Origin: Cryptobacterium curtum DSM 15641
GTDB lineage: Bacteria > Actinomycetota > Coriobacteriia > Coriobacteriales > Eggerthellaceae
Direction of reading: 5' to 3'
Assembly (NCBI RefSeq): GCF_000023845.1
Contig: NC_013170.1
Coordinates: 310,001-374,000 of the forward strand
DNA length: 64,000 bases
Shown here one piece after another: positions 3,194 to 47,865 of this stretch. The position numbers and the translations under genes were made by a program. The first letter of the stretch is position 1. The number at the start of each line of letters is the position of its first letter. The notes under the pieces were generated by a model. The model saw only the letters and a list, made by a program, of their open reading frames with translations, searched no databases and was not told the origin of the DNA.

Positions 3194-3269
3194 GCCTCCG
3201 TAGCTCAGGGGATAGAGCACTGCTCTCCTAAAGCGGGTGTCGCGCGTTCGAATCGCGCCGGGGGCACCA
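3194..3269 (+). tRNA. tRNA-Arg (anticodon CCT)
   Basis: Folds into a full cloverleaf: acceptor GCCTCCG (3194-3200) with CGGGGGC (3259-3265), D stem GCTC/GAGC, anticodon stem CTGCT/AGCGG with loop CTCCTAA (anticodon CCT at 3227-3229), T stem GCGCG/CGCGC with loop TTCGAAT, discriminator A and encoded CCA. The anticodon loop and everything 3' of it are duplicated near 37524, so this gene is the integration site of the prophage, whose left end rebuilds the tRNA 3' half. Confidence 0.95.
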
Positions 3270-3340
3270 TGAAATAGCAGGTCAGACGGTTATTCTGTCT
3301 GGCCTGTTTTTGTTGCTTGGGGTGGGCGTGTAACAAAATG
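3225..3340 (+). repeat. attL-side repeat (tRNA 3' half plus terminator)
   Basis: About 116 bases covering the tRNA from its anticodon loop through the terminator and the following GGTGGGCGTG stretch. It matches 37524-37641 with scattered mismatches; the exact shared core is CTCCTAAAGC. The copy here keeps perfect T-arm and acceptor pairing. Confidence 0.85.
3278..3311 (+). terminator. tRNA-Arg rho-independent terminator
   Basis: CAGGTCAGAC (3278-3287) pairs with GTCTGGCCTG (3297-3306) over 10 bp with one G-T pair, followed by five T. The same hairpin is repeated almost unchanged beyond the right prophage end (about 37577-37612). Confidence 0.85.
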
Positions 3341-32858: not shown

Positions 32859-32881
32859 TATTTCGTCTGGGGGTGGTATTC

Positions 32882-33568
32882 ATGGCTCAAGTCAGCCGAT
32901 CGGTTTTCGGTAAAAATTTAAGAGCTTTCCGCGAAAGTCGGGGCATCACACAGCAACAAATAGCTGATGTGACAGACACAACAAACGTCACGGTTAACAA
33001 ATGGGAAAACAGAGGAGTACAACCACGCAGGAAGATAGTTGACGATCTACTAGCATATTACTCGCTAGACGAAGACGACCTTCTTTCAGATGTCAGCGGT
33101 CTTTACGCCCAGATACACGGCCTCACCTCCGCGCCCGCGGGGGCTATAGCGGCCAAGAAGCCACGACGGGCATACGCGCCACTCCTGGGGCGTGTACATG
33201 CGGGGGAGGCGGTAGAGCCTGACATCCTCGATAGCGAGATACCGATCCCGTATGAGGTGTGGGAGCACCACCAGAGCGGCTATTTCCTCCAGGTCGAGGG
33301 GAGCTGCATGAATAGGGTATACCCAGAGGGGTGCTATGTATTTATCGACCCCGATATGACCCCGCAGGACGGATCTATCGCGGTATCGAGTATCGACGAG
33401 ACGGATTATATTATGCGGCGGCTGCACATGGGCGCTACGACGATGATCCTCTCGCCTGAATCATTCGACGAGCAGTGGGAAGACTTGATTATTACGCGTG
33501 ATAGTGGCAAGACGGTATCATTCCAGGGGGTTGTTGTCTGGTATCAGCCACAGGAAGAAATGAACTAG
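32882..33568 (+). CDS. CI/LexA-like prophage repressor (HTH + S24 domain)
   Basis: 228 aa. Residues 10-60 are an XRE-type helix-turn-helix (LRAFRESRGITQQQIADVTD, NVTVNKWENRG); residues about 98-215 are an S24 peptidase domain with the likely cleavage pair Ala107-Gly108 (GRVHAGEA) and nucleophile Ser141 (VEGSCMNRVYPEG). Where the family has the general-base Lys (usually VKRL) this protein reads MRRL, i.e. Arg179, so self-cleavage may be impaired. ATG 32882 is chosen over GTG 32873 because GGGGGTGG lies just before it. It should silence the leftward early promoter. Confidence 0.9.
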   Translation: MAQVSRSVFGKNLRAFRESRGITQQQIADVTDTTNVTVNKWENRGVQPRRKIVDDLLAYYSLDEDDLLSDVSGLYAQIHGLTSAPAGAIAAKKPRRAYAPLLGRVHAGEAVEPDILDSEIPIPYEVWEHHQSGYFLQVEGSCMNRVYPEGCYVFIDPDMTPQDGSIAVSSIDETDYIMRRLHMGATTMILSPESFDEQWEDLIITRDSGKTVSFQGVVVWYQPQEEMN

Positions 33569-33585: not shown

Positions 33586-34125
33586 TTGAAAAAGGTAGTT
33601 CTATTAGCCGTTGCGGCGGCTTTATCCGTACTCGCTATTGCGTCATTCTCTGGCTGTGCTCTATCTGCGCTGTCTTCGCAGTCCAAGCCTGCGGATGTGG
33701 ACGACGGTATGACCACAGTAGAACATGACGGGTATTCTTTTAAGTGCCCGTCAGACTGGGAGTGGGAGAAGTATACAGACGATTCGTTTGTCTGCCGCTT
33801 TACCGATGAAGAAAAAAGCGGGTTTATCTTTATACAAGAAGTTACCGCTAAATATGGTGACCCCAGCGGAGCTATTAGCCTAGATGAGATTTACGATACA
33901 TGGCTAGCGGATGATAGTGAAAAAACCTATAAGGGGATAGAAGAGTTTAGCGTCGGTGGCTATGACTGGGTGAAAGCTATCGAGAAGAGAAATGACAAAA
34001 AAGGACAAATAGCCATCGGCTCAGTATCGTCGTCAAAATATCTCGTGATTGACTATGTTTATTACGATCAGCCAAAACATAAAGCCGACTTTGACAAGAT
34101 GCTCGACAGTATAAAGCTGATATAA
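33586..34125 (+). CDS. Prophage-encoded lipoprotein
   Basis: 179 aa, TTG start. A lipoprotein signal (MKKVVLLAVAAALSVLAIAS, then FSGC) is followed by a compact domain with YSFKCPSDWEWEKYTDDSFV and a C-terminal DFDKMLDSIKLI helix, similar to PsbP/DUF-type bacterial lipoproteins. Located directly behind the repressor (17-base gap), so expressed in the lysogen: a lysogenic-conversion candidate, e.g. superinfection exclusion at the cell surface. Confidence 0.8.
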   Translation: MKKVVLLAVAAALSVLAIASFSGCALSALSSQSKPADVDDGMTTVEHDGYSFKCPSDWEWEKYTDDSFVCRFTDEEKSGFIFIQEVTAKYGDPSGAISLDEIYDTWLADDSEKTYKGIEEFSVGGYDWVKAIEKRNDKKGQIAIGSVSSSKYLVIDYVYYDQPKHKADFDKMLDSIKLI

Positions 34126-34212: not shown

Positions 34213-34776
34213 ATGGCAGCGAGAAAAGTAAGCAAAAGAAACGGGGGCGGAAATGACGACTTTGGCGCTATTGACGATGCCCGGTCTAGACGGGTCGAAG
34301 AAGATCCGGAAGATGCGCGAGGAGAACGAGCGCAGCACGGAGACGATGCTGGCGCGCAGACGCTTAGCAGCGATGGTTCTCAATCTGGAGAACTCGCAGA
34401 AACGATCCTCTCAAAAATAGAGCAGCTGCCTCCCAATGATTTTATTGGGCTTATGCTCGCGGCTCAATCGAGTGAGTGGCATGGGCTTTTACCACCTCCC
34501 GATGACTACAATAAATACCCCGAAGACGCTAAGAGACGTATGCTCGCGTGGAATGACGCGCAAATTGTAGACGGGGCAAAGAGGAACGACAAGCTAGCTA
34601 ACGCAGAGATAAAACAGGGCGCACGGGAGCAGTGGCTCTCGTTTATCCTTAATGCCCTTTTTATCTCGGCGGCGTTCTTTGCGTTTGTCATCACTGGTAA
34701 TGCTGCATCGCTAAGTTTTCTCGCGGTGCCAGGCGTAACCGTCGCCGTGAATATCTACCGTAGAAAAGGGAAATAG
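34213..34776 (+). CDS. DUF2335 membrane protein
   Basis: 187 aa. A charged, disordered N-terminus; a middle part LPPNDFIGLMLAAQSSEWHG, LPPPDDYNKYPEDAKRRMLA; and two C-terminal membrane helices (WLSFILNALFISAAFFAFVI, AASLSFLAVPGVTVAVNIY). This matches DUF2335 predicted membrane proteins. It lies in the lysogenic-conversion slot between repressor and integrase and may act in exclusion of other phages; not demonstrated. Confidence 0.78.
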   Translation: MAARKVSKRNGGGNDDFGAIDDARSRRVEEDPEDARGERAQHGDDAGAQTLSSDGSQSGELAETILSKIEQLPPNDFIGLMLAAQSSEWHGLLPPPDDYNKYPEDAKRRMLAWNDAQIVDGAKRNDKLANAEIKQGAREQWLSFILNALFISAAFFAFVITGNAASLSFLAVPGVTVAVNIYRRKGK

Positions 34777-34778
34777 CC

Positions 34779-34893
34779 GTGCGTTCAGCCCAGGGGTGTA
34801 TCCGGGAGCTTAGCGGCGGTCGCCGTCGCGTAATGGTCGAAATGCCGCGCGACCCGATCACCGGTAAGCGTCGGCAGATAGCGCAGGTAAAAA
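34779..34893 (+). pseudogene. Truncated 5' remnant of an integrase
   Basis: GTG-initiated frame coding ELSGGRRRVMVEMPRDPITG and KRRQIAQVKR, which aligns with the first 39 residues of the intact integrase at 36331 (KLDNGRWQVRVEFPRDRITG, KRRQISKTIR) at about 60% identity. After that the similarity ends and the frame runs out at 34970 inside the next gene. It is a relic of a different integrase gene, interrupted where the GHKL/STAS cassette begins. Confidence 0.85.
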
Positions 34894-34896
34894 GAG

Positions 34897-35889
34897 ATGA
34901 CCTTCAAAACTGTGAAAGTAGGAACATACGAGAAGTCTATCTCGGACTGTCCAGTCAAATCGCTATGTAAAGGCAGGAATCTCGCAATTGAAAGCTCTGT
35001 CAAAGAAGTACTTTTTGATCTGTCTGGGACAGACTTTTTCTCGATATCCTGCACGGCCGCGCTTGCCGAAGCGATTATGGCGTATCAAGGTCGTCAGCAG
35101 GTATCAGTCAGCGAACCACCGGGGTCTGTAGCAGATTATCTTTCTCGGATGAATTTCTATTCACTTGCGAGAATCGAGCACAATGAGTGCTTTTCTAGGC
35201 ATGAACCACACGACAGGTTCATACCACTATGCGAGCTCTCGTATTCAAACGATCCTGGAAAGACAGCAGATCTGATGGAGTCTATGCTGAAGAAGAATAT
35301 TGCGGACGTTGATGGATCGGTGACTAACCTTGCGAACTACGCTTTCGGCGAAATAATGGACAACGTGCTCCAGCATTCTGAAACGGCTGTGAGTGGATTA
35401 GCGGCTGCACAGTATTATCCAAAGCTAGGGTATGTAGAGCTCGTCGTAGCTGATGCGGGGCAGGGAATCGTTGCGAGCATGGCCGATAACATTTCCTATT
35501 CCGGTATGTCATCAGACGAGCTCATAGAGAAAGCATTCGAGGCAGAAGCCGGTCAATATATCGGTAAGACTAACTTTTCTGACGGCAAAGCATCAATGGG
35601 CATGGGACTCAATATAGCCTCTAAGTTTACGAGAGCGTTAAAAGGATATCTTTGGGTAGTTTCACGAGACAGTGCTGCAGTTATATCGAGCTGCGGATTC
35701 AAAAAGATTCCAGGCCTCTTCTATCCGGGAACGGTCGTGTGTATGAAGCTTCCGCTGCAGTCTAGTGCGAAGATCCTCGAATCTGAGATATTCGAGGGTG
35801 GCCGTAATGAGCCACTTCTCTGGTCTATCGAGGAAGGTGGATTTCACTGTAAGTCGGATATTATAGGAGACGATCATGTTCTTTGGTAA
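34897..35889 (+). CDS. STAS-like plus GHKL-type ATPase protein
   Basis: 330 aa. Residues about 30-75 resemble a STAS-like strand-helix unit (IESSVKEVLFDLSGTDFFSI, SCTAALAEAI). Residues about 140-260 carry the three GHKL/HATPase boxes: N box LANYAFGEIMDNVLQH (Glu152, Asn156, His160), G1 VVADAGQGI (Asp186-Gly-Gln-Gly), G2 KASMGMGLNI. It is therefore related to histidine-kinase/anti-sigma ATPases, but no dimerisation histidine or sensor is visible. GC is lower than in the phage genes around it. It is followed 92 bases later by a STAS-like partner. Confidence 0.8.
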   Translation: MTFKTVKVGTYEKSISDCPVKSLCKGRNLAIESSVKEVLFDLSGTDFFSISCTAALAEAIMAYQGRQQVSVSEPPGSVADYLSRMNFYSLARIEHNECFSRHEPHDRFIPLCELSYSNDPGKTADLMESMLKKNIADVDGSVTNLANYAFGEIMDNVLQHSETAVSGLAAAQYYPKLGYVELVVADAGQGIVASMADNISYSGMSSDELIEKAFEAEAGQYIGKTNFSDGKASMGMGLNIASKFTRALKGYLWVVSRDSAAVISSCGFKKIPGLFYPGTVVCMKLPLQSSAKILESEIFEGGRNEPLLWSIEEGGFHCKSDIIGDDHVLW

Positions 35890-35981
35890 TTGTTTGTGTG
35901 TTGGACGACTTGATGTGCATACAATGGGATTATTCGCATTGTCAAGCACCCCGCACGACGGTGCAATGAAAGGAGGCGGCT

Positions 35982-36290
35982 ATGATTGTCAAGATGAACG
36001 GATTCGGGCATTCCCTAGTGAGCAGAGCAGCTGGGCGTGTCGCCTACAATCGTATAGTGTCTCTGCCTACATGGGGCACGGAAAAGACCGTATTCGACTT
36101 TTCTGGGGTTGGTTCCATTACGAATTCGTTTGCCGACGAGGTTTTTGGGCGGATGGCGTTCGAAATGGGCATGGAAGCCATGAGAAAGAAAACGTCATTC
36201 AAAGGGATCAATCCCTTCATGGCAAGAATTGTTCGTACAACAATAGATGCACGTGCAGATCAGAGCGAATTTTTGAAGACAACTGTATAG
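35982..36290 (+). CDS. STAS-like DUF4325 protein
   Basis: 102 aa with the pattern of DUF4325: basic N-terminus (MIVKMNGFGHSLVSRAAGRV), ...KTVFDFSGVGSITNSFADEV, FGRMAFEMG, then INPFMARIVRTTIDAR. Excellent ribosome site AAAGGAGG (35971-35978) before ATG 35982. Such proteins are thought to act as partner-switching (anti-anti-sigma-like) elements with GHKL ATPases; here both genes form a two-gene cassette between integrase remnant and integrase. Confidence 0.8.
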   Translation: MIVKMNGFGHSLVSRAAGRVAYNRIVSLPTWGTEKTVFDFSGVGSITNSFADEVFGRMAFEMGMEAMRKKTSFKGINPFMARIVRTTIDARADQSEFLKTTV

Positions 36291-36330
36291 CGAGGACATT
36301 CTATCTTGCGAATCGCGTCGAGGAGCTGCT

Positions 36331-37476
36331 ATGAGATCGTTTCATGGTGGCATAACGAAACTCGACAACGGTAGGTGGCAGGTTCGCGTAGAGTTTCCGC
36401 GTGATCGGATAACCGGCAAACGTAGGCAGATATCGAAGACCATAAGAGGAACGCGGCGTAAAGCTGAAAGAGTCAAGGCTGATATGCTTGCGGAAGCCGG
36501 GAAAGCCGATGTGACATGCGATGCGACCCTGCGCGAGTATGCCCTGGAAGAGTACTTGCCTTCCAAAGAGGCAGAATGTAAACAGAGCACAATAGATGGA
36601 TACCGTTGTAGGCTTGAGAACCATGTGCTGCCCTACTTAGGCGATATAGCACTAGAAGATTTACGCACTGCCACAATTAGACGATGGCTCGATCGTCTAG
36701 ATAAGTCTCAATCGGTCAAACGTGAAGCCTACAAGATACTCGATCAGGTGTGCAAGCATGCCATGTATCGTGACATGATGCAATCCAACCCATGCGACAG
36801 GATAAGGGTACCGAAGGTCAAACGCTACGAACCTGTAGTTCTCACTGCAGAACAGGCGATAGCTTACTTGGATCATTTCGAGGGTTCAAGTATTGAAATC
36901 GCAGTTCTACTAGCTCTCGGTTGCGGATTGAGACGCGGCGAGATTGCTGCCCTTAACGTAAGCGATATAAATTGGGAGACTGGCGCAGTCATTGTTGACG
37001 ATTCGTATGTAACAACCTCCAAAGGGACGATTCGCAGCACAACAAAGAACGGCAGAGCTCGTACTGTTCATATGCCAGAATCACTCTTAGCAAGGCTGCA
37101 CAAAATCGCCCCCAAGTCAGGTGCTCTACTCCAATGGGATGGCAGAAGATATAGACCGCATTCAATCACGGAAGCATATGAGCGCAAGATCCAATCACTT
37201 CCAGAAGGCTTGCCTAGAATTCCTCTGAAGAATCTTCGCCATACCTCTCTTACGCTTGCGTATGATTCAGGGGCGAGGATTACCGATGTGCGCGATCGCG
37301 CGGGTCATTCGTCGGAGGCAGTCACTGAACGATACTACGTAAGGCCAAAGATTTCACGTGATGCAGAGATAGCACAGGCGGTTGACTCTATGCTTTCTGA
37401 GCACTTCACAAAATTTCACAAGTGCACAGAATATGACTATATAGAAAGTGACTATAGTAATCACGAAATAGCCTAG
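36331..37476 (+). CDS. int: Tyrosine-type phage integrase
   Basis: 381 aa. AP2-like arm-binding N-terminus (KLDNGRWQVRVEFPRDRITG), SAM-like core-binding domain (about 65-150), catalytic domain with Arg201 (CGLRRGEIAAL), Lys239 (TTKNGRARTV), Lys300-Asn-Leu-Arg303-His304 (His of HxxR replaced by Lys, as in many relatives), His326 (AGHSSEAVTERYY) and Tyr335/336. Ribosome site GAGGAG. It ends 47 bases before the attR core and should integrate and excise the element at tRNA-Arg. Confidence 0.93.
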   Translation: MRSFHGGITKLDNGRWQVRVEFPRDRITGKRRQISKTIRGTRRKAERVKADMLAEAGKADVTCDATLREYALEEYLPSKEAECKQSTIDGYRCRLENHVLPYLGDIALEDLRTATIRRWLDRLDKSQSVKREAYKILDQVCKHAMYRDMMQSNPCDRIRVPKVKRYEPVVLTAEQAIAYLDHFEGSSIEIAVLLALGCGLRRGEIAALNVSDINWETGAVIVDDSYVTTSKGTIRSTTKNGRARTVHMPESLLARLHKIAPKSGALLQWDGRRYRPHSITEAYERKIQSLPEGLPRIPLKNLRHTSLTLAYDSGARITDVRDRAGHSSEAVTERYYVRPKISRDAEIAQAVDSMLSEHFTKFHKCTEYDYIESDYSNHEIA

Positions 37477-37523: not shown

Positions 37524-37641
37524 CTCCTAAAGCAGGTGTCGACGGTTCGAATCCGCCCGGGGGAACCATGAAAATAGCAGGTCAGATGGTTATTCTGTCT
37601 GGCCTGTTTTTGTTGCTTGAGGGTGGGCGTGTGCCAAAATG
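37524..37641 (+). repeat. attR-side repeat: displaced tRNA-Arg 3' end and terminator
   Basis: CTCCTAAAGC, GGTGTCG, a T-arm TTCGAATCC, CGGGGG-AACCA and the terminator hairpin again, i.e. a diverged second copy of 3225-3340. Two positions would break tRNA pairing (acceptor end and T stem), so this copy is not a functional tRNA part. A 109-codon frame across it is spurious. Confidence 0.85.
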
Positions 37642-39848: not shown

Positions 39849-42419
39849 ATGAACAAACAACAGCTGGCCTCGAAGATCTGGGAATCAGCCAACAAGATGC
39901 GCTCGACCATTGAGGCAAGCCAGTACAAGGATTACATCTTAGGTTTTATTTTCTACAAGTTCTTGTCAGAGACCGAGGTAGCACGCTTAAAAGCTAAGGA
40001 TTTTGCCGAGTCCGATCTACCAACCCTTACTGAGGACGATCCCGAAACAGTGGCATTTGTGCGGGGAGAGTGCGGTTACTTTATTGCCTATGACGATCTA
40101 TTCCAAACTTGGATTGCAAAGGGTAAGGACTTTGAAATTGCTGACGTGCGCGATGCGCTTTCCGCTTTTGATCGTAATGTGAGTCCAGCTCATAAGAAAG
40201 TTTTTGAAAAAATCTTCGAAACCTTGCAGACAGGGCTTTCGAAGTTAGGAACTGATGCTCGTAGTCAGTCGAAAGCTGCTCGCGATCTTATCCAGCTCAT
40301 CAAGGATATTCCTATGGACGGGCGCCAGGATTACGACGTGCTGGGCTACATCTATGAGTATCTTCTTGAAAAGTTCGCAACCAACGCGGGAAAGAAAGCC
40401 GGAGAGTTTTACACACCACATGAAGTGAGCCAGCTCATAAGTGAAATAGTCGCCTGGCATCTGCAGAGTCGTAGGCAAATTGAAATTTATGACCCTACTT
40501 CGGGCTCTGGTTCATTGCTTATTAACATCGGTAAAGCAGTCGCTCGTCGCAACGGTAACCCCGACAGTATTAAGTACTATGCGCAGGAATTGAAGGAGAA
40601 TACTTACAACCTGACGCGTATGAACCTGGTTATGCGCGGCATTTTGCCGGATAACATTGCGGTACGTAACGGCGATACACTGGCAGATGACTGGCCCTGG
40701 TTTGACACGGTAGAAAACAAGGACGAGACCTACAAACCTCTATTCGTTGATGCCGTTGTTTCTAATCCGCCTTATTCTCAAGATTGGGATCCTGTCGATA
40801 AAGAAATCGATCCACGCTTCGAGTATGGTGTAGCGCCTAAATCAAAAGCTGACTACGCCTTTTTGCTGCATGATTTATATCATCTACGCAATGACGGCAT
40901 TATGTGCATTGTCTTGCCTCATGGCGTGCTATTTCGCGGCGGCGAGGAAGGTTTGATACGCAGGAACCTCGTTGAGCACCGTCACATTCAGGCCATTATC
41001 GGCCTTCCCGCCAATATTTTCTTCGGTACGGGTATTCCTACCATCATCATGGTGCTGCGTAAGCAGCGTGCCGCAGGTGACGACAATGTTTTGGTAGTGG
41101 ATGCAAGTAAGTATTTCATGAAAGAGGGTAAGAACAACAAGTTGCGTGCCAGCGATATCAAACGTATCGTTGATGCCGTTACCACTAATACAGATGTCGA
41201 TAGCTTTAGCCGCTCGGTAACAATCGATGAGATTCGAAAGAATGATTACAACTTAAACATTCCGCGGTATGTCGATTCATCTGAAGCGCCCGAAGGTTGG
41301 GATGTTTTCGCTACGATGTTCGGCGGTGTGCCCGTTACAGAAGTGGATGCCCTTGACGAATATTGGACGGCCTGGCCCAGTTTGAAGGCACAGTTATTCA
41401 CCGACAACGGTAGCTCGTGCCTTACGCCCACGGCGAGCAATGTTGCTGAAGTGATAGCCGCAAATACCGATGTAAAAAGCTTTATCACTAGATTCAATCA
41501 AGCTATAGAAGGTTTTCCGAAAGCCATGGAAAACAGTTTGGTGGTTGCTCCTGAAAGCGTTGATACTCTTGCAGAAGAAGATGTACTAGCCAGCCAAATT
41601 GGACATATGCTTGCAGAAGTGCCATTAGTTGATGGCTACGACGCTTACCAGGCACTCGATGATGCTTGGCGCGACATTTCGGTTGACTTGGAAATCATTC
41701 AGTCCGAGGGATTTAATGCAGTGCGCAAAGTTGATCCTAATATGGTTGTCAAGAAAAAAAGAGGTGAAGATATTGAAGTTCAGGATGGTTGGGCAGGACG
41801 TATTCTTCCTTTCGAGTTGGTGCAGAGACAGTTTTTAGCGGACAGCCTAGCCGAAGTATCCAGTGCTGAAGCGCGACTTTCAGATATCGGTCAGGAGATT
41901 TCCGAAATTATCGAAAATCTTGACGAGGAAGACAAGAATTCGACGGACGCCATAAACGAGGCAGGCGATGCTTTTGTTTCTGCCGATTTGAAGAAGGCCG
42001 TTAAAGCAATTGGCAAGAATCCGGAGTCTGATTTTGAGGCATCGTTGGTTTGCGCTCAGAATCTACTCGAAGAAGAGAAGATCCTAAAGAAACAAGTAAA
42101 GGCGCAACGTATTGATCTGCACGAAGCAACTAAAAAGGTACTAGAGGGTTTAGATGATAGTCAGTGCAGAGAGCTGTTGAAGCTGAAATGGATTAAACCC
42201 TTATTTGAAAAACTATCTGTTTTACCTGGTGCGACAGTTGATGATTTCGTATCGAAAATCCAAGCGCTCTATGCGAAGTATGAAACCACTTACGCTGATG
42301 TTTGCAGTCAGATAGAAACCGCCGAGCTCGAACTTTCAAGTATGCTCGATGATTTAACGGGCAATGAATTCGATATGGCTGGAATAGCGGAACTCAAAAA
42401 ACTTTTAAGTGGTGAATAG
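39849..42419 (+). CDS. hsdM: Type I restriction-modification methyltransferase subunit
   Basis: 856 aa, longer than the usual 500-550. N-terminal HsdM helical domain (ASKIWESANKMRSTIEASQY, KDYILGFIFYKFLSE), SAM-binding loop DPTSGSGSLLINIG at about 215, catalytic NPPYSQDW at 306-313. The C-terminal 300 residues are an extra, mostly coiled-coil, region (about 560-856) often found in actinobacterial HsdM. It modifies adenine at the sites chosen by HsdS. Confidence 0.94.
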   Translation: MNKQQLASKIWESANKMRSTIEASQYKDYILGFIFYKFLSETEVARLKAKDFAESDLPTLTEDDPETVAFVRGECGYFIAYDDLFQTWIAKGKDFEIADVRDALSAFDRNVSPAHKKVFEKIFETLQTGLSKLGTDARSQSKAARDLIQLIKDIPMDGRQDYDVLGYIYEYLLEKFATNAGKKAGEFYTPHEVSQLISEIVAWHLQSRRQIEIYDPTSGSGSLLINIGKAVARRNGNPDSIKYYAQELKENTYNLTRMNLVMRGILPDNIAVRNGDTLADDWPWFDTVENKDETYKPLFVDAVVSNPPYSQDWDPVDKEIDPRFEYGVAPKSKADYAFLLHDLYHLRNDGIMCIVLPHGVLFRGGEEGLIRRNLVEHRHIQAIIGLPANIFFGTGIPTIIMVLRKQRAAGDDNVLVVDASKYFMKEGKNNKLRASDIKRIVDAVTTNTDVDSFSRSVTIDEIRKNDYNLNIPRYVDSSEAPEGWDVFATMFGGVPVTEVDALDEYWTAWPSLKAQLFTDNGSSCLTPTASNVAEVIAANTDVKSFITRFNQAIEGFPKAMENSLVVAPESVDTLAEEDVLASQIGHMLAEVPLVDGYDAYQALDDAWRDISVDLEIIQSEGFNAVRKVDPNMVVKKKRGEDIEVQDGWAGRILPFELVQRQFLADSLAEVSSAEARLSDIGQEISEIIENLDEEDKNSTDAINEAGDAFVSADLKKAVKAIGKNPESDFEASLVCAQNLLEEEKILKKQVKAQRIDLHEATKKVLEGLDDSQCRELLKLKWIKPLFEKLSVLPGATVDDFVSKIQALYAKYETTYADVCSQIETAELELSSMLDDLTGNEFDMAGIAELKKLLSGE

Positions 42420-42420
42420 C

Positions 42421-43035
42421 ATGGCCGCTAAATCGAAAACACCTGAGATCCGATTCAAGGGTTTTACTGACCCTTGGGAACAGCGTAAGTTGGGGGATGT
42501 GCTAACGGAAAGAAATATCCAACGCGCGCAGAGCGAGGATTTTCCATTGGTTTCGTTTACGGTTGAGAACGGTGTGACGCCAAAAACAGAGCGCTACGAT
42601 AGAGAGCAACTAGTGCGAGGAGATAGAGCTGCTAAGAAATACAAGGAAACGAGGTTGGATGATATCGTTTACAATCCAGCAAATCTGAAATTTGGAGCAA
42701 TAGCTAGAAATACTCTCAGAAACGCTGTATTTAGCCCTATCTACGTTACTTTCAATGTTGATGAAACTGCTGCCCCTAGCTTTATAGAAAAAGTGGTTAC
42801 AAGATCTAGGTTCATTCAGGGCGCATTGCGATATCAACAAGGCACAGTTTACGAAAGAATGTCCGTTAGTCCTGAAGAATTGTGTGACTTAAACGTGACA
42901 TTGCCTTATTTAGATGAGCAACAGTATATAGGAAGTTATTTCACCAACCTCGATCACCTCATCACCCTTCATCAGCGTAAGTGCGACAAGCTCAAACAGC
43001 TTAAGCAGTCCCTGCTCGAGAAGATGTTCGTATAA
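42421..43035 (+). CDS. hsdS: Half-size type I specificity subunit, expressed copy
   Basis: 204 aa, half the normal 400, with one target-recognition domain. N-terminus PEIRFKGFTDPWEQRKLGDV, C-terminus LDHLITLHQRKCDKLKQLKQ then SLLEKMFV. It is the only copy with both complete ends, directly behind hsdM, so it is the currently expressed specificity; half-subunits are known to work as dimers. Both borders of the variable part are recombination repeats shared with the two other copies. Confidence 0.9.
   Translation: MAAKSKTPEIRFKGFTDPWEQRKLGDVLTERNIQRAQSEDFPLVSFTVENGVTPKTERYDREQLVRGDRAAKKYKETRLDDIVYNPANLKFGAIARNTLRNAVFSPIYVTFNVDETAAPSFIEKVVTRSRFIQGALRYQQGTVYERMSVSPEELCDLNVTLPYLDEQQYIGSYFTNLDHLITLHQRKCDKLKQLKQSLLEKMFV
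42472..42498 (+). repeat. hsdS upstream recombination repeat, copy A
   Basis: Contains TGGGAACAGCGTAAGTTGGG (coding WEQRKLG). 27 bases identical to 44052-44078; 22 bases identical in inverse orientation to 49402-49423. Confidence 0.92.
42958..42981 (+). repeat. hsdS downstream recombination repeat, copy A
   Basis: CTCATCACCCTTCATCAGCG followed by TAAG (coding LITLHQRK). Also present at 44547-44570, 47941-47964, and inverted at 48933-48956. Confidence 0.92.
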
Positions 43036-43044
43036 GGAAAGCCT

Positions 43045-44040
43045 ATGTCGTATCAGCCGCCCTTTACTCTCAACAGCCAGATACTCGACCTTGTTGCCGA
43101 CATTGCTCAAAAGGTGGGCCGAGTGGATGCATATGGCCAGATCAATCGCAGTCTACAGCTGCGTAAGGAGAACCGTATACGGACTATCCATTCTTCTCTT
43201 GCTATCGAGAACAACACGCTTTCGCTTGAACAGGTTACGGCGGTGATTGAGGGTAAGCACGTTATCGCACCACCTAAAGACCTTCTTGAAGTGCAGAATG
43301 CTATTAAGGTCTACGAGAATATTGATTCATTTAATCCTCTTTCGGTGGACGATCTCCTTTGTGCCCACAAGGAGCTTATGGGCGGGCTTGTTCCCGAGGC
43401 GGGTAGACTGCGTAGCGGTAATGTAGGGATCTTCGCAGGTGAAAGGCTTATACATGCTGGCACGCCGGCAAAGTACGTTTCAAACGTTCTGACTGATTTA
43501 TTCTCATGGCTTGCTGCTGGCGAGTTTCATCCGCTTGTAACCTCGTGCGTGTTTCATTACGAGTTTGAGTTCATCCATCCTTTCCAAGATGGTAACGGTC
43601 GCATGGGCAGACTTTGGCAGACAATCATTTTGAGTAGATGGAACGACATTTTTGCATGGCTTCCTGTCGAAACGCTAGTCAAGGAACGTCAGAAAGACTA
43701 CTACGATGCACTCTCTGGTTCTGACGAGCAGGGTGACAGCACACGATTCATTGAGTTTATGCTCGGCATGATTTCACAGACACTTGATGATGTTCTTGCT
43801 TCTGGCAATGATGTCGGTATAAATGACGGTATAAATGTCGGTATAACGAATGCGGCAGAGGCTATGCGTGAGCAGTTGCTTTTGCTCGTGAGTGGTAATC
43901 CGAGTATAACTGTTAAACAAATGGCAGCTGAACTGGGTATAAGCACTCGTCAGACCGAACGAATCGTTTCAAGCTTAAAGCAGGAAGGTAAGCTTGTCCG
44001 TATTGGCGCTAATCGCAATGGTCGCTGGGAGGTACGATAG
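43045..44040 (+). CDS. Fic-domain protein (probable AMPylase) within the hsd operon
   Basis: 331 aa. Fic motif HPFQDGNGRMGR at 178-189, complete. An N-terminal inhibitory helix motif (SSLAIENNTLS, Ser51...Glu55-Asn56) predicts an auto-inhibited class II Fic. The C-terminus carries a winged helix (ITVKQMAAELGISTRQTERI) preceded by a small repeat GINDGINVGIT. It lies between two hsdS genes; 10 bases after hsdS1 and 2 bases before hsdS2. Known Fic proteins transfer AMP or other groups to proteins; the target here is unknown. Confidence 0.9.
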   Translation: MSYQPPFTLNSQILDLVADIAQKVGRVDAYGQINRSLQLRKENRIRTIHSSLAIENNTLSLEQVTAVIEGKHVIAPPKDLLEVQNAIKVYENIDSFNPLSVDDLLCAHKELMGGLVPEAGRLRSGNVGIFAGERLIHAGTPAKYVSNVLTDLFSWLAAGEFHPLVTSCVFHYEFEFIHPFQDGNGRMGRLWQTIILSRWNDIFAWLPVETLVKERQKDYYDALSGSDEQGDSTRFIEFMLGMISQTLDDVLASGNDVGINDGINVGITNAAEAMREQLLLLVSGNPSITVKQMAAELGISTRQTERIVSSLKQEGKLVRIGANRNGRWEVR

Positions 44041-44042
44041 GA

Positions 44043-44591
44043 ATGTCTTCTCCTTGGGAACAGCGTAAGTTGGGGGATTTTGCCTCAAAGAAGACCTCCA
44101 AGAACAATTCTTTGGCCTTTAGCGAAACTTTCACCAACTCTGCTGAACGTGGCGTTGTGAGTCAGTTGGACTACTTCGATCACGACGTCACGAATGCCGA
44201 AAGCATTGGCGGTTACTATGTGGTGGAACCGGACGACTTTGTCTACAACCCACGTATCTCTGTCACAGCTCCAGTAGGCCCCATTAATCGAAATCGACTA
44301 GGTAGAACTGGAGTTATGTCGCCACTATATACAGTCTTCGAAACCGATGAGTCAGTAGATAAGTGCTATCTCGAACATTTCTTTAGGACGCGAATTTGGC
44401 ATAAATTCATGTTTTTGGAAGGCAATAGTGGCGCTCGTTCTGACCGTTTCTCCATTGGAGATGAAACGTTCTTCGAGATGCCAATCGCCTGTCCACTGTT
44501 TGAGGAGCAAAGAGCAATCGCAAGCTACTTGGAATCAATAGATTCTCTCATCACCCTTCATCAGCGTAAGTTGAAGTTACTAAAATACTAA
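44043..44591 (+). CDS. hsdS: Second half-size HsdS, truncated by a frameshift
   Basis: 182 aa with a different recognition domain from hsdS1 but the same borders (SSPWEQRKLGDF at the start, SLITLHQRKLKLLKY at the end). After the stop the next frame continues NTKKAMLDKTFV to a TAG at 44622, exactly the expected C-terminus of an HsdS; the loss of one A in an A-run at 44582-44585 explains the break. It is probably a silent donor or a phase-off copy. Translation could be coupled to the Fic stop. Confidence 0.85.
   Translation: MSSPWEQRKLGDFASKKTSKNNSLAFSETFTNSAERGVVSQLDYFDHDVTNAESIGGYYVVEPDDFVYNPRISVTAPVGPINRNRLGRTGVMSPLYTVFETDESVDKCYLEHFFRTRIWHKFMFLEGNSGARSDRFSIGDETFFEMPIACPLFEEQRAIASYLESIDSLITLHQRKLKLLKY
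44052..44078 (+). repeat. hsdS upstream recombination repeat, copy B
   Basis: Identical over 27 bases to copy A; direct orientation. Confidence 0.92.
44541..44570 (+). repeat. hsdS downstream recombination repeat, copy B
   Basis: GATTCTCTCATCACCCTTCA and the next 10 bases are identical over 30 bases to 47935-47964, and over the last 24 to copy A. Confidence 0.92.
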
Positions 44592-44631
44592 GAAAGCAAT
44601 GCTCGATAAAACGTTTGTCTAGGAGCTTTAC

Positions 44632-47600
44632 ATGATTTACGAAAACGAAGCTGATTTCGAAGAAGCGGTTATCAACGTCTTAAAGCAGCACGGCTGGGAT
44701 GACGCTGATGGCGTTATAAAATATCCGACCGAGGCAGACTTGATTCGAAATTGGGCGGAAATTCTGTATCAGAATAACTCTGATCGTGACCGCCTGAATG
44801 GCTTTCCCCTTACAGATGGTGAGATGGCGCAAGTCATTGAGCAGGTTGAGGCTTTACGGAGTCCGCTTGCGCTCAATGGTTTCATCAACGGAAAAACTGT
44901 TGCCATTAAACGCGATAATCCTGATGATGCGGCACATTATGGTCGTGAAGTGAGTCTGAATATTTATGACCGCCGCGAAATTGCTGGTGGTAAAAGCCGA
45001 TACCAGATTGCCCAGCAGCCTAGATATCCCGCGAAGAATAAGCTATTGAACGATCGGCGTGGAGATTTATGTCTGCTTATCAATGGCATGCCGCTTATTC
45101 ATATCGAGCTGAAACGCAGTGGCGTTTCGATAAGTCAAGCATGCAATCAGATAGAGAAGTATTCTCATGAAGGAGTATTCACCGGAATTTTCCGGTTGGT
45201 GCAGCTTTTTGTTGCCATGAATCCTGATGATGCTGTTTATTTCGCCAACCCTGGTGCAGGAAATTTTAATTCGAATTTCTATTTCCACTGGGCTGACTTT
45301 AACAACGAACCCTATTGTGCCAACCAGAATCCGGGCGCCGATGATTGGAAACGTTTTACTTCGAGTTTACTTTCTATTCCCATGGCGCATCAGATGATCG
45401 GCTTCTATACCGTGGCCGATTCAGGGGATGGTTGCTTAAAAGTCCTGCGCAGTTATCAGTACTATGCCGCTAGTTCTATTTCTGACCATGTACGCGCATG
45501 CGATTGGGGAGCATCAACGCCTGCGGGCACGCCTGGAAGACCTGGTGGTTATATATGGCATACCACAGGTTCTGGCAAGACCATGACATCGTTTAAGGCT
45601 GCGCAGTTGGTTGCGGATTCCAGAGACGCTGACAAGGTCGTTTTTCTCATGGATCGCATTGAGCTTGGAACCCAATCGCTTAAGGAGTACCGAGCTTTTG
45701 CCGACGATGCTGATGACGTTCAAGCTACTGAAAACACTGATGTTCTGCGCCATAAGCTTGTTGAAAGCACCGACCCCAAAGACACTCTTATTGTTACTTC
45801 TATCCAGAAAATGAGCAATGTGAAAGTTGGTGAAGGTGGGATTACTCAGGCTGAACTCGATCGTATGGCCAAGAAGCGTATCGTTTTTATCCTCGACGAA
45901 TGCCATCGTTCGACTTTTGGCACCATGCTACAGGATATTCGCACTAGTTTTCCCAATGCGTTGTTCTTTGGATTTACAGGCACTCCCATCCAGGAAGAGA
46001 ACAAGAAAAAGGGCGCAACAACGTCGATGATATTCGGCAATTGTTTGCATCGCTACAGCATTGCTGATGGCATTCGCGACGGCAATGTACTCGGCTTCGA
46101 CCCGTGTATGGTTACTACGTATAAAGATAAAGACGTGCGTAAAGCAGTTGCACTTGAGCAGGCAAAGGCCGACTCTGTCGAGGCTGTGATGGAAAATCCG
46201 AAGAAGGAGGAAATCTTTTATTACTGGATGAATGAGGCACCCATGGGTCCAAGGGTCAGCGACGCTGGCGAATATATCAAAGGCGTCGAGGATTTTATGA
46301 AGTCTGTCCAATACGATGAGGACACTCCCCATGAATATCAGGTAATCAATGACATCGTTGAGCAATTTCCGATATTAAGTCACGGTAATAAGTTTCACGC
46401 CATTCTGGCCACGAGCTCAATTTCAGAAGCTATCAGCTACTACCGTCGTCTTAAGGAGTGTGCCCCGCAGCTTAAATGCACTGCATTGTTTGATCCGAGT
46501 ATTGATAACAATGATGGCGCTACAGTGAAGGAAGATGCGCTTGTTGAAATTATCGGGGACTATAACGATACCTATGGCAAGGAATTTGCTATTCCTACCT
46601 GGGGAAGTATGAAGAAAGATATATCGTCCCGATTAGCGCATAAAGAACCATACCTAAATATCGATAGCAACCGAGACAAGCGCATCGATATCTTAATAGT
46701 GGTCGACCAGATGCTTACAGGTTTCGACTCGAAGTGGGTGAATACACTGTATCTGGATAAGGTTATCGACTACGAAAGTATTATTCAGGCATTCAGTCGA
46801 ACGAATCGTTTGTTCGGTCCCGAAAAACCCTTTGGCGTGATCCGCTATTACCGCAAACCTCACACTATGTCTGGCTATATCAAAGCAGCAGTAAAGCTGT
46901 ATTCGGGCGACAAACCGCTCGATCTGTTTGTGCAGAAGCTTCACCAGAATATCAAGATGATGGATGCGCGTCTATTAGAGATAAAGGCACTATTTCAAGC
47001 TAACGGCGTGAGCGATTTAAGCCGATTGCCAGACTCTCGAGAAGCACGCGCTAAGTTCGCAAAAGACTTTGTAGAGCTGAGTCACTTTCTTGAATCTGCT
47101 CAGGTGCAGGGCTTTAGTTGGGACAAAGTAGAGTATGAATTTGAACCCGGCACGCTCGATGAGTCCATGCGTGATGAATTAAGAATGATAGATGGCGGAT
47201 ACGAGTCTTCGGGTAATTATATGATTGTGAAACCTAATATCGATGAGCGGACATACTTGATTTTAGCGCAGCGATATAAGGAGCTGTTTAAGTCTAAACT
47301 GGGTCCTACACCCGATGATGTTCCGTACGATATTGACGGACATTTAACGGAAATTGATACGGGAAAAATCGATACTGACTATATGAATTCAAACTTTGTG
47401 AAGTGGCTAAAAGCTCTAAACAGTGGCGACGACAATTTAGAAGCAGCTTCTGAAGAGTTACATCGTTCGTTTGCATCGCTGCCGCAGGACGAGCAACGTC
47501 TTGCGGAATTGTTTTTGCATGATGTTGAACGAGGGGACGTGAAGCTTGAGGATGGAAAGACGTTACGTGATTACATCACAGCGTATGGCCGCCATGAGAA

Positions 47601-47865
47601 GGATAGCCAATTCGATAAGGTGGTTGAGGCTTTAGGTGTTGATCGTGATTTACTGGTTGAGATGGCTGGTCTGGACCTAACGGAGGAGAACATCAACGAG
47701 TATGGACGGTTCGATCGTTTGAAGAACAGCATCGATAAGACCACAGCTAAGACGTATTTCGAAAGAGTCGAGGGCGTGTCAATTGCCCCGTTTAAGGTGC
47801 ATGTAAAAGCTGATGAACTGTTAAAACGCTTTATTATTGAAGGTGGATTCGATTTAAATGATTAG
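44632..47865 (+). CDS. hsdR: Type I restriction enzyme, R subunit
   Basis: 1077 aa. N-terminal nuclease half with NGMPLIHIELKRSGV (the ExK of the PD-(D/E)xK core) at about 155, Walker A GYIWHTTGSGKTMTS near residue 305, DEAD-like ILDECHRSTFGTM near 421, helicase motifs FFGFTGTPI and later DILIVVDQMLTGFDSKWVNT and IIQAFSRTNRL. Complete. Ribosome site AGGAG overlaps the stop of the original full-length hsdS2. It translocates and cuts unmodified DNA. Confidence 0.95.
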   Translation: MIYENEADFEEAVINVLKQHGWDDADGVIKYPTEADLIRNWAEILYQNNSDRDRLNGFPLTDGEMAQVIEQVEALRSPLALNGFINGKTVAIKRDNPDDAAHYGREVSLNIYDRREIAGGKSRYQIAQQPRYPAKNKLLNDRRGDLCLLINGMPLIHIELKRSGVSISQACNQIEKYSHEGVFTGIFRLVQLFVAMNPDDAVYFANPGAGNFNSNFYFHWADFNNEPYCANQNPGADDWKRFTSSLLSIPMAHQMIGFYTVADSGDGCLKVLRSYQYYAASSISDHVRACDWGASTPAGTPGRPGGYIWHTTGSGKTMTSFKAAQLVADSRDADKVVFLMDRIELGTQSLKEYRAFADDADDVQATENTDVLRHKLVESTDPKDTLIVTSIQKMSNVKVGEGGITQAELDRMAKKRIVFILDECHRSTFGTMLQDIRTSFPNALFFGFTGTPIQEENKKKGATTSMIFGNCLHRYSIADGIRDGNVLGFDPCMVTTYKDKDVRKAVALEQAKADSVEAVMENPKKEEIFYYWMNEAPMGPRVSDAGEYIKGVEDFMKSVQYDEDTPHEYQVINDIVEQFPILSHGNKFHAILATSSISEAISYYRRLKECAPQLKCTALFDPSIDNNDGATVKEDALVEIIGDYNDTYGKEFAIPTWGSMKKDISSRLAHKEPYLNIDSNRDKRIDILIVVDQMLTGFDSKWVNTLYLDKVIDYESIIQAFSRTNRLFGPEKPFGVIRYYRKPHTMSGYIKAAVKLYSGDKPLDLFVQKLHQNIKMMDARLLEIKALFQANGVSDLSRLPDSREARAKFAKDFVELSHFLESAQVQGFSWDKVEYEFEPGTLDESMRDELRMIDGGYESSGNYMIVKPNIDERTYLILAQRYKELFKSKLGPTPDDVPYDIDGHLTEIDTGKIDTDYMNSNFVKWLKALNSGDDNLEAASEELHRSFASLPQDEQRLAELFLHDVERGDVKLEDGKTLRDYITAYGRHEKDSQFDKVVEALGVDRDLLVEMAGLDLTEENINEYGRFDRLKNSIDKTTAKTYFERVEGVSIAPFKVHVKADELLKRFIIEGGFDLND

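What the first reader, a model, noticed from the sequence alone, without database searches (positions are those of the whole stretch)
34779..37476. GHKL-ATPase/STAS-like two-gene cassette inserted beside a duplicated integrase start
Between a DUF2335 gene and the integrase the phage carries a 115-bp relic of another integrase (about 60% identical to the start of the intact one), then two genes: a protein with STAS-like and GHKL ATPase parts (all N, G1, G2 boxes intact) and a DUF4325 STAS-like protein with a near-perfect ribosome site, then the intact integrase. This looks like replacement of an old integrase by a module (cassette + new integrase + att), a typical place for cargo such as defence or host-takeover genes. 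The pair resembles a partner-switch (anti-sigma / anti-anti-sigma) without a sigma factor. I know of no described phage system of this composition; a defence, exclusion or lysogeny-control role is my inference.
Basis: partly seen in the sequence, partly recalled or inferred. Interest (0 to 1): 0.7.

Follow-up and report, generated by a model that had tools for sequence, protein, structure and literature searches.

The report
Toxin-less kinase/STAS switch in prophage
A prophage carries, beside its integrase gene, a two-protein switch (a kinase and its likely target) related to switches that trigger bacterial anti-virus responses after DNA damage, but without the usual toxin, so what it controls is an open and testable question.

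Summary
A prophage (att repeats in tRNA-Arg, structural genes present) carries in its repressor-to-integrase operon a relic of an integrase start, a STAS-GHKL protein (K, 34897-35889) and a STAS-like DUF4325 protein (S, 35982-36290). They are a true pair: in a scan of a genome collection 76 of 80 DUF4325 loci have GHKL fused or directly upstream. Closest characterised relatives: the kinase/STAS pairs VapK-VapS(-VapC) and CapK-CapS (EMBO J 2026), in which the kinase phosphorylates the STAS protein and frees a toxin or a promoter. This pair plausibly works like them but is not a member: no VapC, no DNA-binding domain, Asn at the phospho-acceptor position (next Ser invariant). VapC-less pairs recur as phage cargo (repressor-integrase and lysin-att slots) and beside defence genes; one Streptococcus prophage has an unannotated full vapKSC in the same slot. 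New here: split kinases end in an acidic tail with terminal Trp (16 of 24; background 6 of 878), absent from 34 of 34 fused forms. Best reading: a DNA-damage-sensing switch carried as cargo, client unknown. New variant of a known kind.

The parts
3225..3340 (+). attL-side repeat, begins in the anticodon loop of tRNA-Arg(CCT) 3194-3269
32873..33568 (+). prophage repressor, HTH + peptidase S24 (first gene of the co-directional lysogeny operon)
   Evidence: Peptidase_S24 7e-13, HTH_3 2.2e-8
33586..34125 (+). small lipoprotein-like protein of unknown function between repressor and pair
   Evidence: no family over cut-off; the lipoprotein reading is from the N-terminus by eye
34213..34776 (+). membrane protein, weakly like moron family phrog_3996
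   Evidence: E 1.5e-4
34779..34898 (+). relic of an integrase start (arm-binding region), 22/40 residues and 67/115 bases identical to the intact integrase
34897..35889 (+). K: N-terminal STAS-like domain + GHKL kinase/ATPase domain + disordered acidic tail ending in Trp (VapK-like kinase)
35982..36290 (+). S: STAS-like DUF4325 protein (VapS-like, no DNA-binding domain, Asn48-Ser49)
36331..37476 (+). tyrosine integrase, 40 bp downstream of S
37524..37641 (+). attR-side repeat

Best explanation
K and S are the sensor half of a VapKS/CapKS-like DNA-damage switch that temperate phages carry as accessory cargo. K is a Ser/Thr kinase of the SpoIIAB fold with an N-terminal STAS domain; S is its STAS-like partner. 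In the resting lysogen S is bound to a client protein (or to K) and keeps it silent. When single-stranded DNA accumulates (superinfecting phage, DNA damage), K binds it between its STAS and GHKL domains, acts on S, and the client is set free. In the nearest studied relatives the client is the VapC ribonuclease or a promoter; here neither is present, so the client must be encoded elsewhere in the prophage or host. The disordered acidic, Trp-ended tail of K takes the place of the covalent link found in fused forms and probably docks S, or plugs the ssDNA groove until ssDNA displaces it. Shown: the pair, its co-inheritance, predicted folds, kinase motifs, cargo positions, the tail. Inferred: kinase activity, ssDNA sensing, phosphorylation, client release, a defence or exclusion outcome.
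For: Pairing: 67 of 80 DUF4325 loci fused to GHKL and 9 of 80 with it directly upstream (one of the 9, L090, has a 5'-truncated K); in 396 class genomes 22 have DUF4325, of which 10 fused, 9 with an intact separate K, 1 truncated K, 2 none found. Homology to VapS: the S-family profile hits solved Escherichia VapS (9z7o) at 3e-6, its only match below 0.5; the same profile finds the VapS of a Deinococcus vapKSC at 3e-12. K: confident model (pLDDT 88, pTM 0.88), GHKL part closest to SpoIIAB (Z 12.5, rmsd 2.6 over 137) and RsbW (Z 10.0), above histidine kinases (about 8). S: STAS fold (pLDDT 93; SpoIIAA Z 6.7). Published mechanism of relatives: PMC13373217 (abstract, all five parts of Results, Discussion read). 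Cargo: operon repressor-...-K-S-integrase here; same slot in Olsenella L055 and Marinitoga phage MPV1, K-S directly before a serine integrase in L061; lysin-att slot in streptococcal phages. Defence neighbours: AbiH (L059), AbiL-like pair (L072, S alone), type I R-M (L099), TIR protein (L103). A Streptococcus prophage (Javan172) carries an unannotated vapC between vapS and integrase. Tail: 16 of 24 split K end in Trp, 6 of 878 background genes; 0 of 34 fused end in an aromatic residue.
Against: S has Asn at the VapS Ser48 / SpoIIAA Ser58 position; in aligned split relatives Asn 11 and Ser 2 of 13, so the published phospho-switch cannot be copied exactly; the following Ser49 is invariant (13 of 13) but is not the known acceptor. 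No VapC in 24 of 27 examined sources, this window included, and no DNA-binding domain on S. K lies outside the vapKSC kinase clade. The Phe47 that aligns with VapK Phe54 is also usual in STAS domains (recall), so it is weak evidence for ssDNA binding. Some fused HTH-GHKL-DUF4325 proteins lack Ser at both positions (G040, G131), so phosphorylation may not be general. Fused relatives in conserved housekeeping surroundings argue that the family is not purely defensive. No conserved operator-like palindrome between K and S.
Confidence: 0.45

Rival explanations
1. Lysogeny control: K-S is the prophage's own DNA-damage sensor and acts on the repressor or on integrase expression, coupling excision to ssDNA in parallel with RecA-driven cleavage of the S24 repressor.
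For: The pair lies in the repressor-integrase operon; an integrase is the next or next-but-one co-directional gene in 4 of 20 distinct intact VapC-less pairs (window, L055, L061, MPV1), with tyrosine and serine integrases alike; also in L090 (truncated K) and in the published gene order of Francisella phage KIRK (CI - 293 aa - DUF4325 - three genes - integrase; passages of PMC7924643).
Against: 16 of the 20 are elsewhere or lie otherwise: lysin-att slot, tail or head genes, plasmids, chromosomes; S has no DNA-binding domain; no conserved operator in the K-S gap; the repressor-integrase slot is also a general cargo slot, and Javan172 holds a toxin-bearing vapKSC there.
Confidence: 0.17
2. Anti-defence decoy: S, which cannot be phosphorylated at the usual place, binds and locks host VapC- or CapS-like clients so that host DNA-damage-triggered defences cannot fire.
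For: Asn at the phospho-acceptor position in 11 of 13 split S; S without K survives next to defence-like genes (L072) or with truncated K (L090, L074).
Against: VapS needs its C-terminal region (residues 94-116) to inhibit VapC (PMC13373217) and this S has only 102 residues; K is conserved with intact catalytic motifs, useless for a decoy.
Confidence: 0.1
3. Classical anti-sigma / anti-anti-sigma switch acting on a host sigma factor.
For: K GHKL domain is closest to SpoIIAB and RsbW; the N-terminal K domain and S are STAS-like.
Against: No sigma gene beside the pair; the sequence profile of S prefers VapS to SpoIIAA; an extra STAS domain on K is foreign to SpoIIAB.
Confidence: 0.1

Closest known systems
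VapK-VapS-VapC (vapKSC), Chambers et al., EMBO J 2026, PMC13373217
   Same: K = STAS + GHKL without HTH; S = short STAS protein directly downstream; detectable homology of S to solved VapS; found in phages and near defence genes, also in the repressor-integrase slot (Javan172)
   Different: No VapC; phospho-acceptor Ser48 replaced by Asn with invariant next Ser; shorter S; separate clade of K. The Trp-ended tail is partly shared (K of L191 ends in Trp, of L192 in Phe, of Javan172 in Ile)
CapK-CapS, same paper
   Same: GHKL kinase gene followed by STAS gene, proposed DNA-damage response
   Different: CapK has an N-terminal HTH and CapS a winged HTH; they stand before an immune operon; none of this here
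Fused GHKL-DUF4325 proteins (PHROG phrog_5816 and the 67 loci)
   Same: Same three domains in the same order (STAS-like, GHKL, DUF4325)
   Different: One chain; Ser-Ser in 34 of 34 where this S has Asn-Ser; no Trp tail; often beside housekeeping genes
SpoIIAB/SpoIIAA and RsbW/RsbV
   Same: Predicted folds of K's GHKL domain and of S
   Different: No sigma factor beside it, extra N-terminal STAS on K, no canonical phospho-Ser
DISARM DrmA model PDLC02567 of PADLOC
   Same: The first 400 positions of that 1750-position profile match K (2.9e-14) and S (1.3e-6)
   Different: No helicase here; 0 of 20 DrmA loci taken from 296 genomes carry K or S nearby, so the model's front part is probably a rare fusion or an artefact

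Membership tests
VapKSC | Kinase with STAS and GHKL domains, no HTH | tested here: met
   (positions 4-89 of the family profile hit anti-sigma antagonist TM1442, 0.003)
VapKSC | Intact GHKL motifs | tested here: met
   11 of 11
VapKSC | STAS partner homologous to VapS | tested here: met
   3e-6 to 9z7o; 3e-12 to Deinococcus VapS
VapKSC | Ser/Thr at the VapS Ser48 position | tested here: not met
   Asn48; Asn in 11 of 13 split relatives
VapKSC | VapC (PIN) toxin gene downstream | tested here: not met
   40 bp between S and integrase
VapKSC | K groups with kinases that have a VapC | tested here: not met
   nine-row Coriobacteriia clade (98/98) apart from the vapKSC clade (100/95); deep order of the tree is weak
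VapKSC | Aromatic residue for ssDNA in the K STAS domain (VapK Phe54) | tested here: inconclusive
   Phe47 invariant in 11 of 11, aligned by eye to the Trp of K in L192 and L190; common in STAS domains (recall)
VapKSC | VapS C-terminal region that blocks VapC | tested here: inconclusive
   S ends at residue 102; model has a helix 78-101
VapKSC / CapKS | Activation by ssDNA and phosphotransfer to S | not testable with these tools
   needs biochemistry
CapKS | HTH on K, winged HTH on S, immune operon downstream | tested here: not met
   next gene is the integrase
SpoIIAB/SpoIIAA-type sigma switch | Partner sigma factor | tested here: inconclusive
   none beside the pair; a distant one is not excluded
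DISARM | DrmA helicase | tested here: not met

The most novel reading that the evidence does not exclude
K is a kinase with a built-in mimic of the SSB acidic tip: its disordered acidic tail ending in Trp competes with ssDNA for K's own groove, or with SSB for repair proteins, so the prophage owns a RecA-independent ssDNA sensor whose partner S, lacking the usual phospho-Ser, drives a new, toxin-free output on superinfection or induction.
Probability: 0.12. Interest if true: 0.8.

Novelty: new variant of a known kind. Interest (0 to 1): 0.5.

Why it matters
It ties an unstudied phage cargo (phrog_3364 + DUF4325) to a freshly described class of DNA-damage-triggered immune switches, shows that the toxin can be absent, and gives concrete handles (Trp tail, Asn48-Ser49) to ask how such kinases recognise their partner and sense ssDNA. 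It also shows that a full vapKSC lies unannotated in a streptococcal prophage.

Tried and rejected
DISARM: dropped after 0 of 20 DrmA loci showed the pair. CapS-like operators: a 6-bp inverted repeat (ACAATG-N10-CATTGT) in the K-S gap of the window is not conserved among relatives. Integrase control as first choice: lowered when streptococcal phages showed the pair in the lysin-att slot. I first counted Javan172 as VapC-less from its annotation; one search showed an unannotated vapC, so it was moved and a tally of 21 pairs became 20. A conserved third gene: clustering of 560 neighbour genes around up to 90 loci found only lineage-bound neighbours. Viral-contig scans with K of L190, L055 and L080 added only identical or near-identical records or nothing. 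No print record of this VapC-less phage pair was found in these searches: DUF4325 (2 papers), STAS-like domain + phage (1), GHKL ATPase + STAS + prophage (0), HATPase + STAS domain + defense system + phage (1), VapS, a six-term search, CapK + CapS + phage (1); most subscription journals are not held. Papers seen: PMC13373217 abstract, all Results parts, Discussion, some other passages; PMC7924643, PMC9142583, PMC12458937 (no hits), PMC9341999, PMC12137116, PMC7824862, PMC13092281 passages only; the rest search listings.
Full report
What is there. The window is 310001-374000 of a one-contig genome of 1,617,804 bases; the size fits Cryptobacterium curtum (recall, not tested). A prophage lies between att repeats at 3225-3340 (starting in the anticodon loop of tRNA-Arg) and 37524-37641; an IMG/VR contig of 33,962 bases holds K with 100% identity. 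Ten large minus-strand proteins gave endolysin, minor tail, tape measure, major tail, major head, minor head, portal, terminase and a ParB/methyltransferase-like protein, and one unknown. On the plus strand runs one co-directional lysogeny operon: S24 repressor, lipoprotein-like gene, membrane protein, integrase relic, K, S, integrase, with gaps of 17, 87, 120 (filled by the relic), 92 and 40 bases.

The relic. 34779-34898 matches the start of the intact integrase in register, 67 of 115 bases and 22 of 40 residues. It is unlike anything else in the window, and in 197 genomes of the class the best match is the intact integrase of this prophage. The pair is thus framed by two integrase starts. 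Whether this is a diverged partial duplication or the remains of an exchanged integrase cannot be told.

The proteins. K (330 aa): HATPase_c 1.4e-6, sub-threshold STAS at 33-93, match to phrog_3364 over residues 21-295 at 5e-26. The family profile reaches anti-sigma antagonist TM1442 and SpoIIAA over its first 90-100 positions, and SpoIIAB and histidine kinases over the GHKL part. The model (28-row alignment, pLDDT 88, pTM 0.88) puts SpoIIAB first (Z 12.5, 137 aligned) and RsbW next (Z 10.0), then topoisomerases and histidine kinases at 8-9. S (102 aa): DUF4325 3.3e-9; STAS fold (pLDDT 93; best rows SLC26 STAS domains Z 7.2 and SpoIIAA 6.7, modest values). A long helix begins at residue 48, the place of the phospho-Ser in STAS antagonists.

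The pair elsewhere. In 396 class genomes DUF4325 occurs in 22: 10 fused to GHKL in one frame, 9 with an intact separate K (one, G236, split over two contig ends), 1 with truncated K (G229), 2 with none found (G206, G305). A scan of genome contigs with the S alignment kept the best 80 of 85 loci: 67 fused, 9 with K directly upstream (one, L090, truncated), 4 alone, of which L096 and L146 lie at contig ends. All viral loci (L082-L089; three of the eight are this prophage or overlap in content) hold K and S as pair or fusion. Fused forms are mostly chromosomal and can be stable in a lineage: in 8 loci the next gene belongs to one family that I read as glyS, and in 5 the preceding one to a family that I read as glyQ. 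Some fusions carry an HTH in front (L065; G040 and G131).

Link to known systems. The S profile's only match below 0.5 among solved structures is Escherichia VapS (9z7o, 3e-6). The paper behind it, PMC13373217, describes CapK-CapS and VapK-VapS-VapC: GHKL kinases activated by ssDNA (shown for CapK, inferred for VapK) that phosphorylate a STAS partner and so free a promoter or the VapC toxin; vapKSC protects E. coli about 100-fold against one phage. K here has the VapK domain order. But S has Asn48 where VapS has Ser48 and SpoIIAA Ser58 (nine positions after the conserved Asp, no gap needed; the SpoIIAA position is recall): in aligned split S Asn 11 and Ser 2 of 13, always followed by Ser; in fused forms Ser-Ser in 34 of 34. 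No VapC-like frame was found in 24 of 27 sources including the window; the three with it are L190, L191 and L192. A tree of 32 K domains sets P0001 in a nine-row Coriobacteriia clade (98/98) away from the vapKSC kinases, with which Javan172 groups (100/95); several rows are long and the deep order is weak.

Where phages keep it. Twenty distinct intact pairs without VapC were gathered (window; G361, G303, G238, G042, G282, G271, G209, G236; L099, L103, L079, L080, L081, L083, L086, L193, L194, L196; the streptococcal group as one). In 4 of 20 an integrase is the next or next-but-one co-directional gene (window, G361, G303, L079; the G361 call rests on phrog_1 at 5.4e-6); G238 has a tyrosine integrase just upstream; L086 has a serine recombinase converging on it. 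The other recurrent position is the lysin-att slot: six streptococcal records matched, three were read, all with K and S after the lysin gene or the gene in its place; S of this group is unannotated but matches the S profile at 1e-8 (one record). Javan172 has HTH, ImmA-like peptidase (my reading), K, S, an unannotated vapC (5320-5847 of L190) and integrase. Francisella phage KIRK has repressor, a 293-aa protein, DUF4325, three genes, integrase by its published table; that the 293-aa protein is K is my guess. Next to defence genes: AbiH in L059, an AbiL-like pair beside S alone in L072, type I R-M in L099, a TIR protein in L103. These are loci I chose to test, not a random sample, so no enrichment is claimed.

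A new feature. Split K proteins end in an acidic, disordered tail closed by Trp: P0001 ends KSDIIGDDHVLW, and most residues of 311-330 have pLDDT under 50. Of 24 split K examined, 16 end in Trp and 17 in an aromatic residue; of 878 other called genes 6 end in Trp (binomial 1.6e-29 if rows were independent, which they are not). The rows with Trp span Coriobacteriia, Clostridia, Alicyclobacillus, a Marinitoga phage, streptococcal phages and one vapKSC (L191). Rows without Trp: L080, L083, L190, L193, L194, L196, L078 and L192 (Phe). None of 34 fused proteins ends in an aromatic residue; in them DUF4325 follows at this place. The tail may therefore tether S, or, like the acidic tip of SSB (recall), compete for ssDNA sites. 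The sections read of PMC13373217 do not mention it.

Judgement. A real, conserved kinase-STAS pair of phage-cargo type, a toxin-less relative of VapKS. The most likely function is a DNA-damage-sensing switch with a client outside the pair; defence or exclusion is more likely than control of the neighbouring integrase, because the pair moves between cargo slots. Phosphorylation, ssDNA sensing and the client are untested.

Noticed in passing
L190:5320-5847 (Streptococcus phage Javan172): Unannotated VapC-like frame between the STAS gene and the integrase: a full vapKSC inside a prophage lysogeny module.
   Followed up: partly
C-termini of split K proteins; window 35850-35889: Acidic tail with terminal Trp in 16 of 24 split kinases, absent in fused forms.
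   Followed up: partly
window 39849-47865: Type I restriction-modification-like genes (by eye: a large methyltransferase-like frame and a 1077-aa frame) lie directly outside attR.
   Followed up: no
window 35019-35045: Terminator-like hairpin with T run inside the 5' part of the K gene; 7 such sites in the region against 4.0 +/- 2.1 in shuffles.
   Followed up: no
PADLOC model PDLC02567: The first 400 positions of this DrmA profile look like a STAS-GHKL-DUF4325 module; it may give false DISARM calls.
   Followed up: partly
L105, L106, L115, L121, L122, L123, L130, L132: Fused GHKL-DUF4325 gene before a glyS-like gene (glyQ-like gene before it in five), a puzzling stable insertion in a housekeeping operon (gene names by eye).
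   Followed up: no
L065, L070, L071: HTH-GHKL-DUF4325 fusions; in G040 and G131 the HTH looks excisionase/MerR-like and there is no Ser at the phospho position (QG in both).
   Followed up: no
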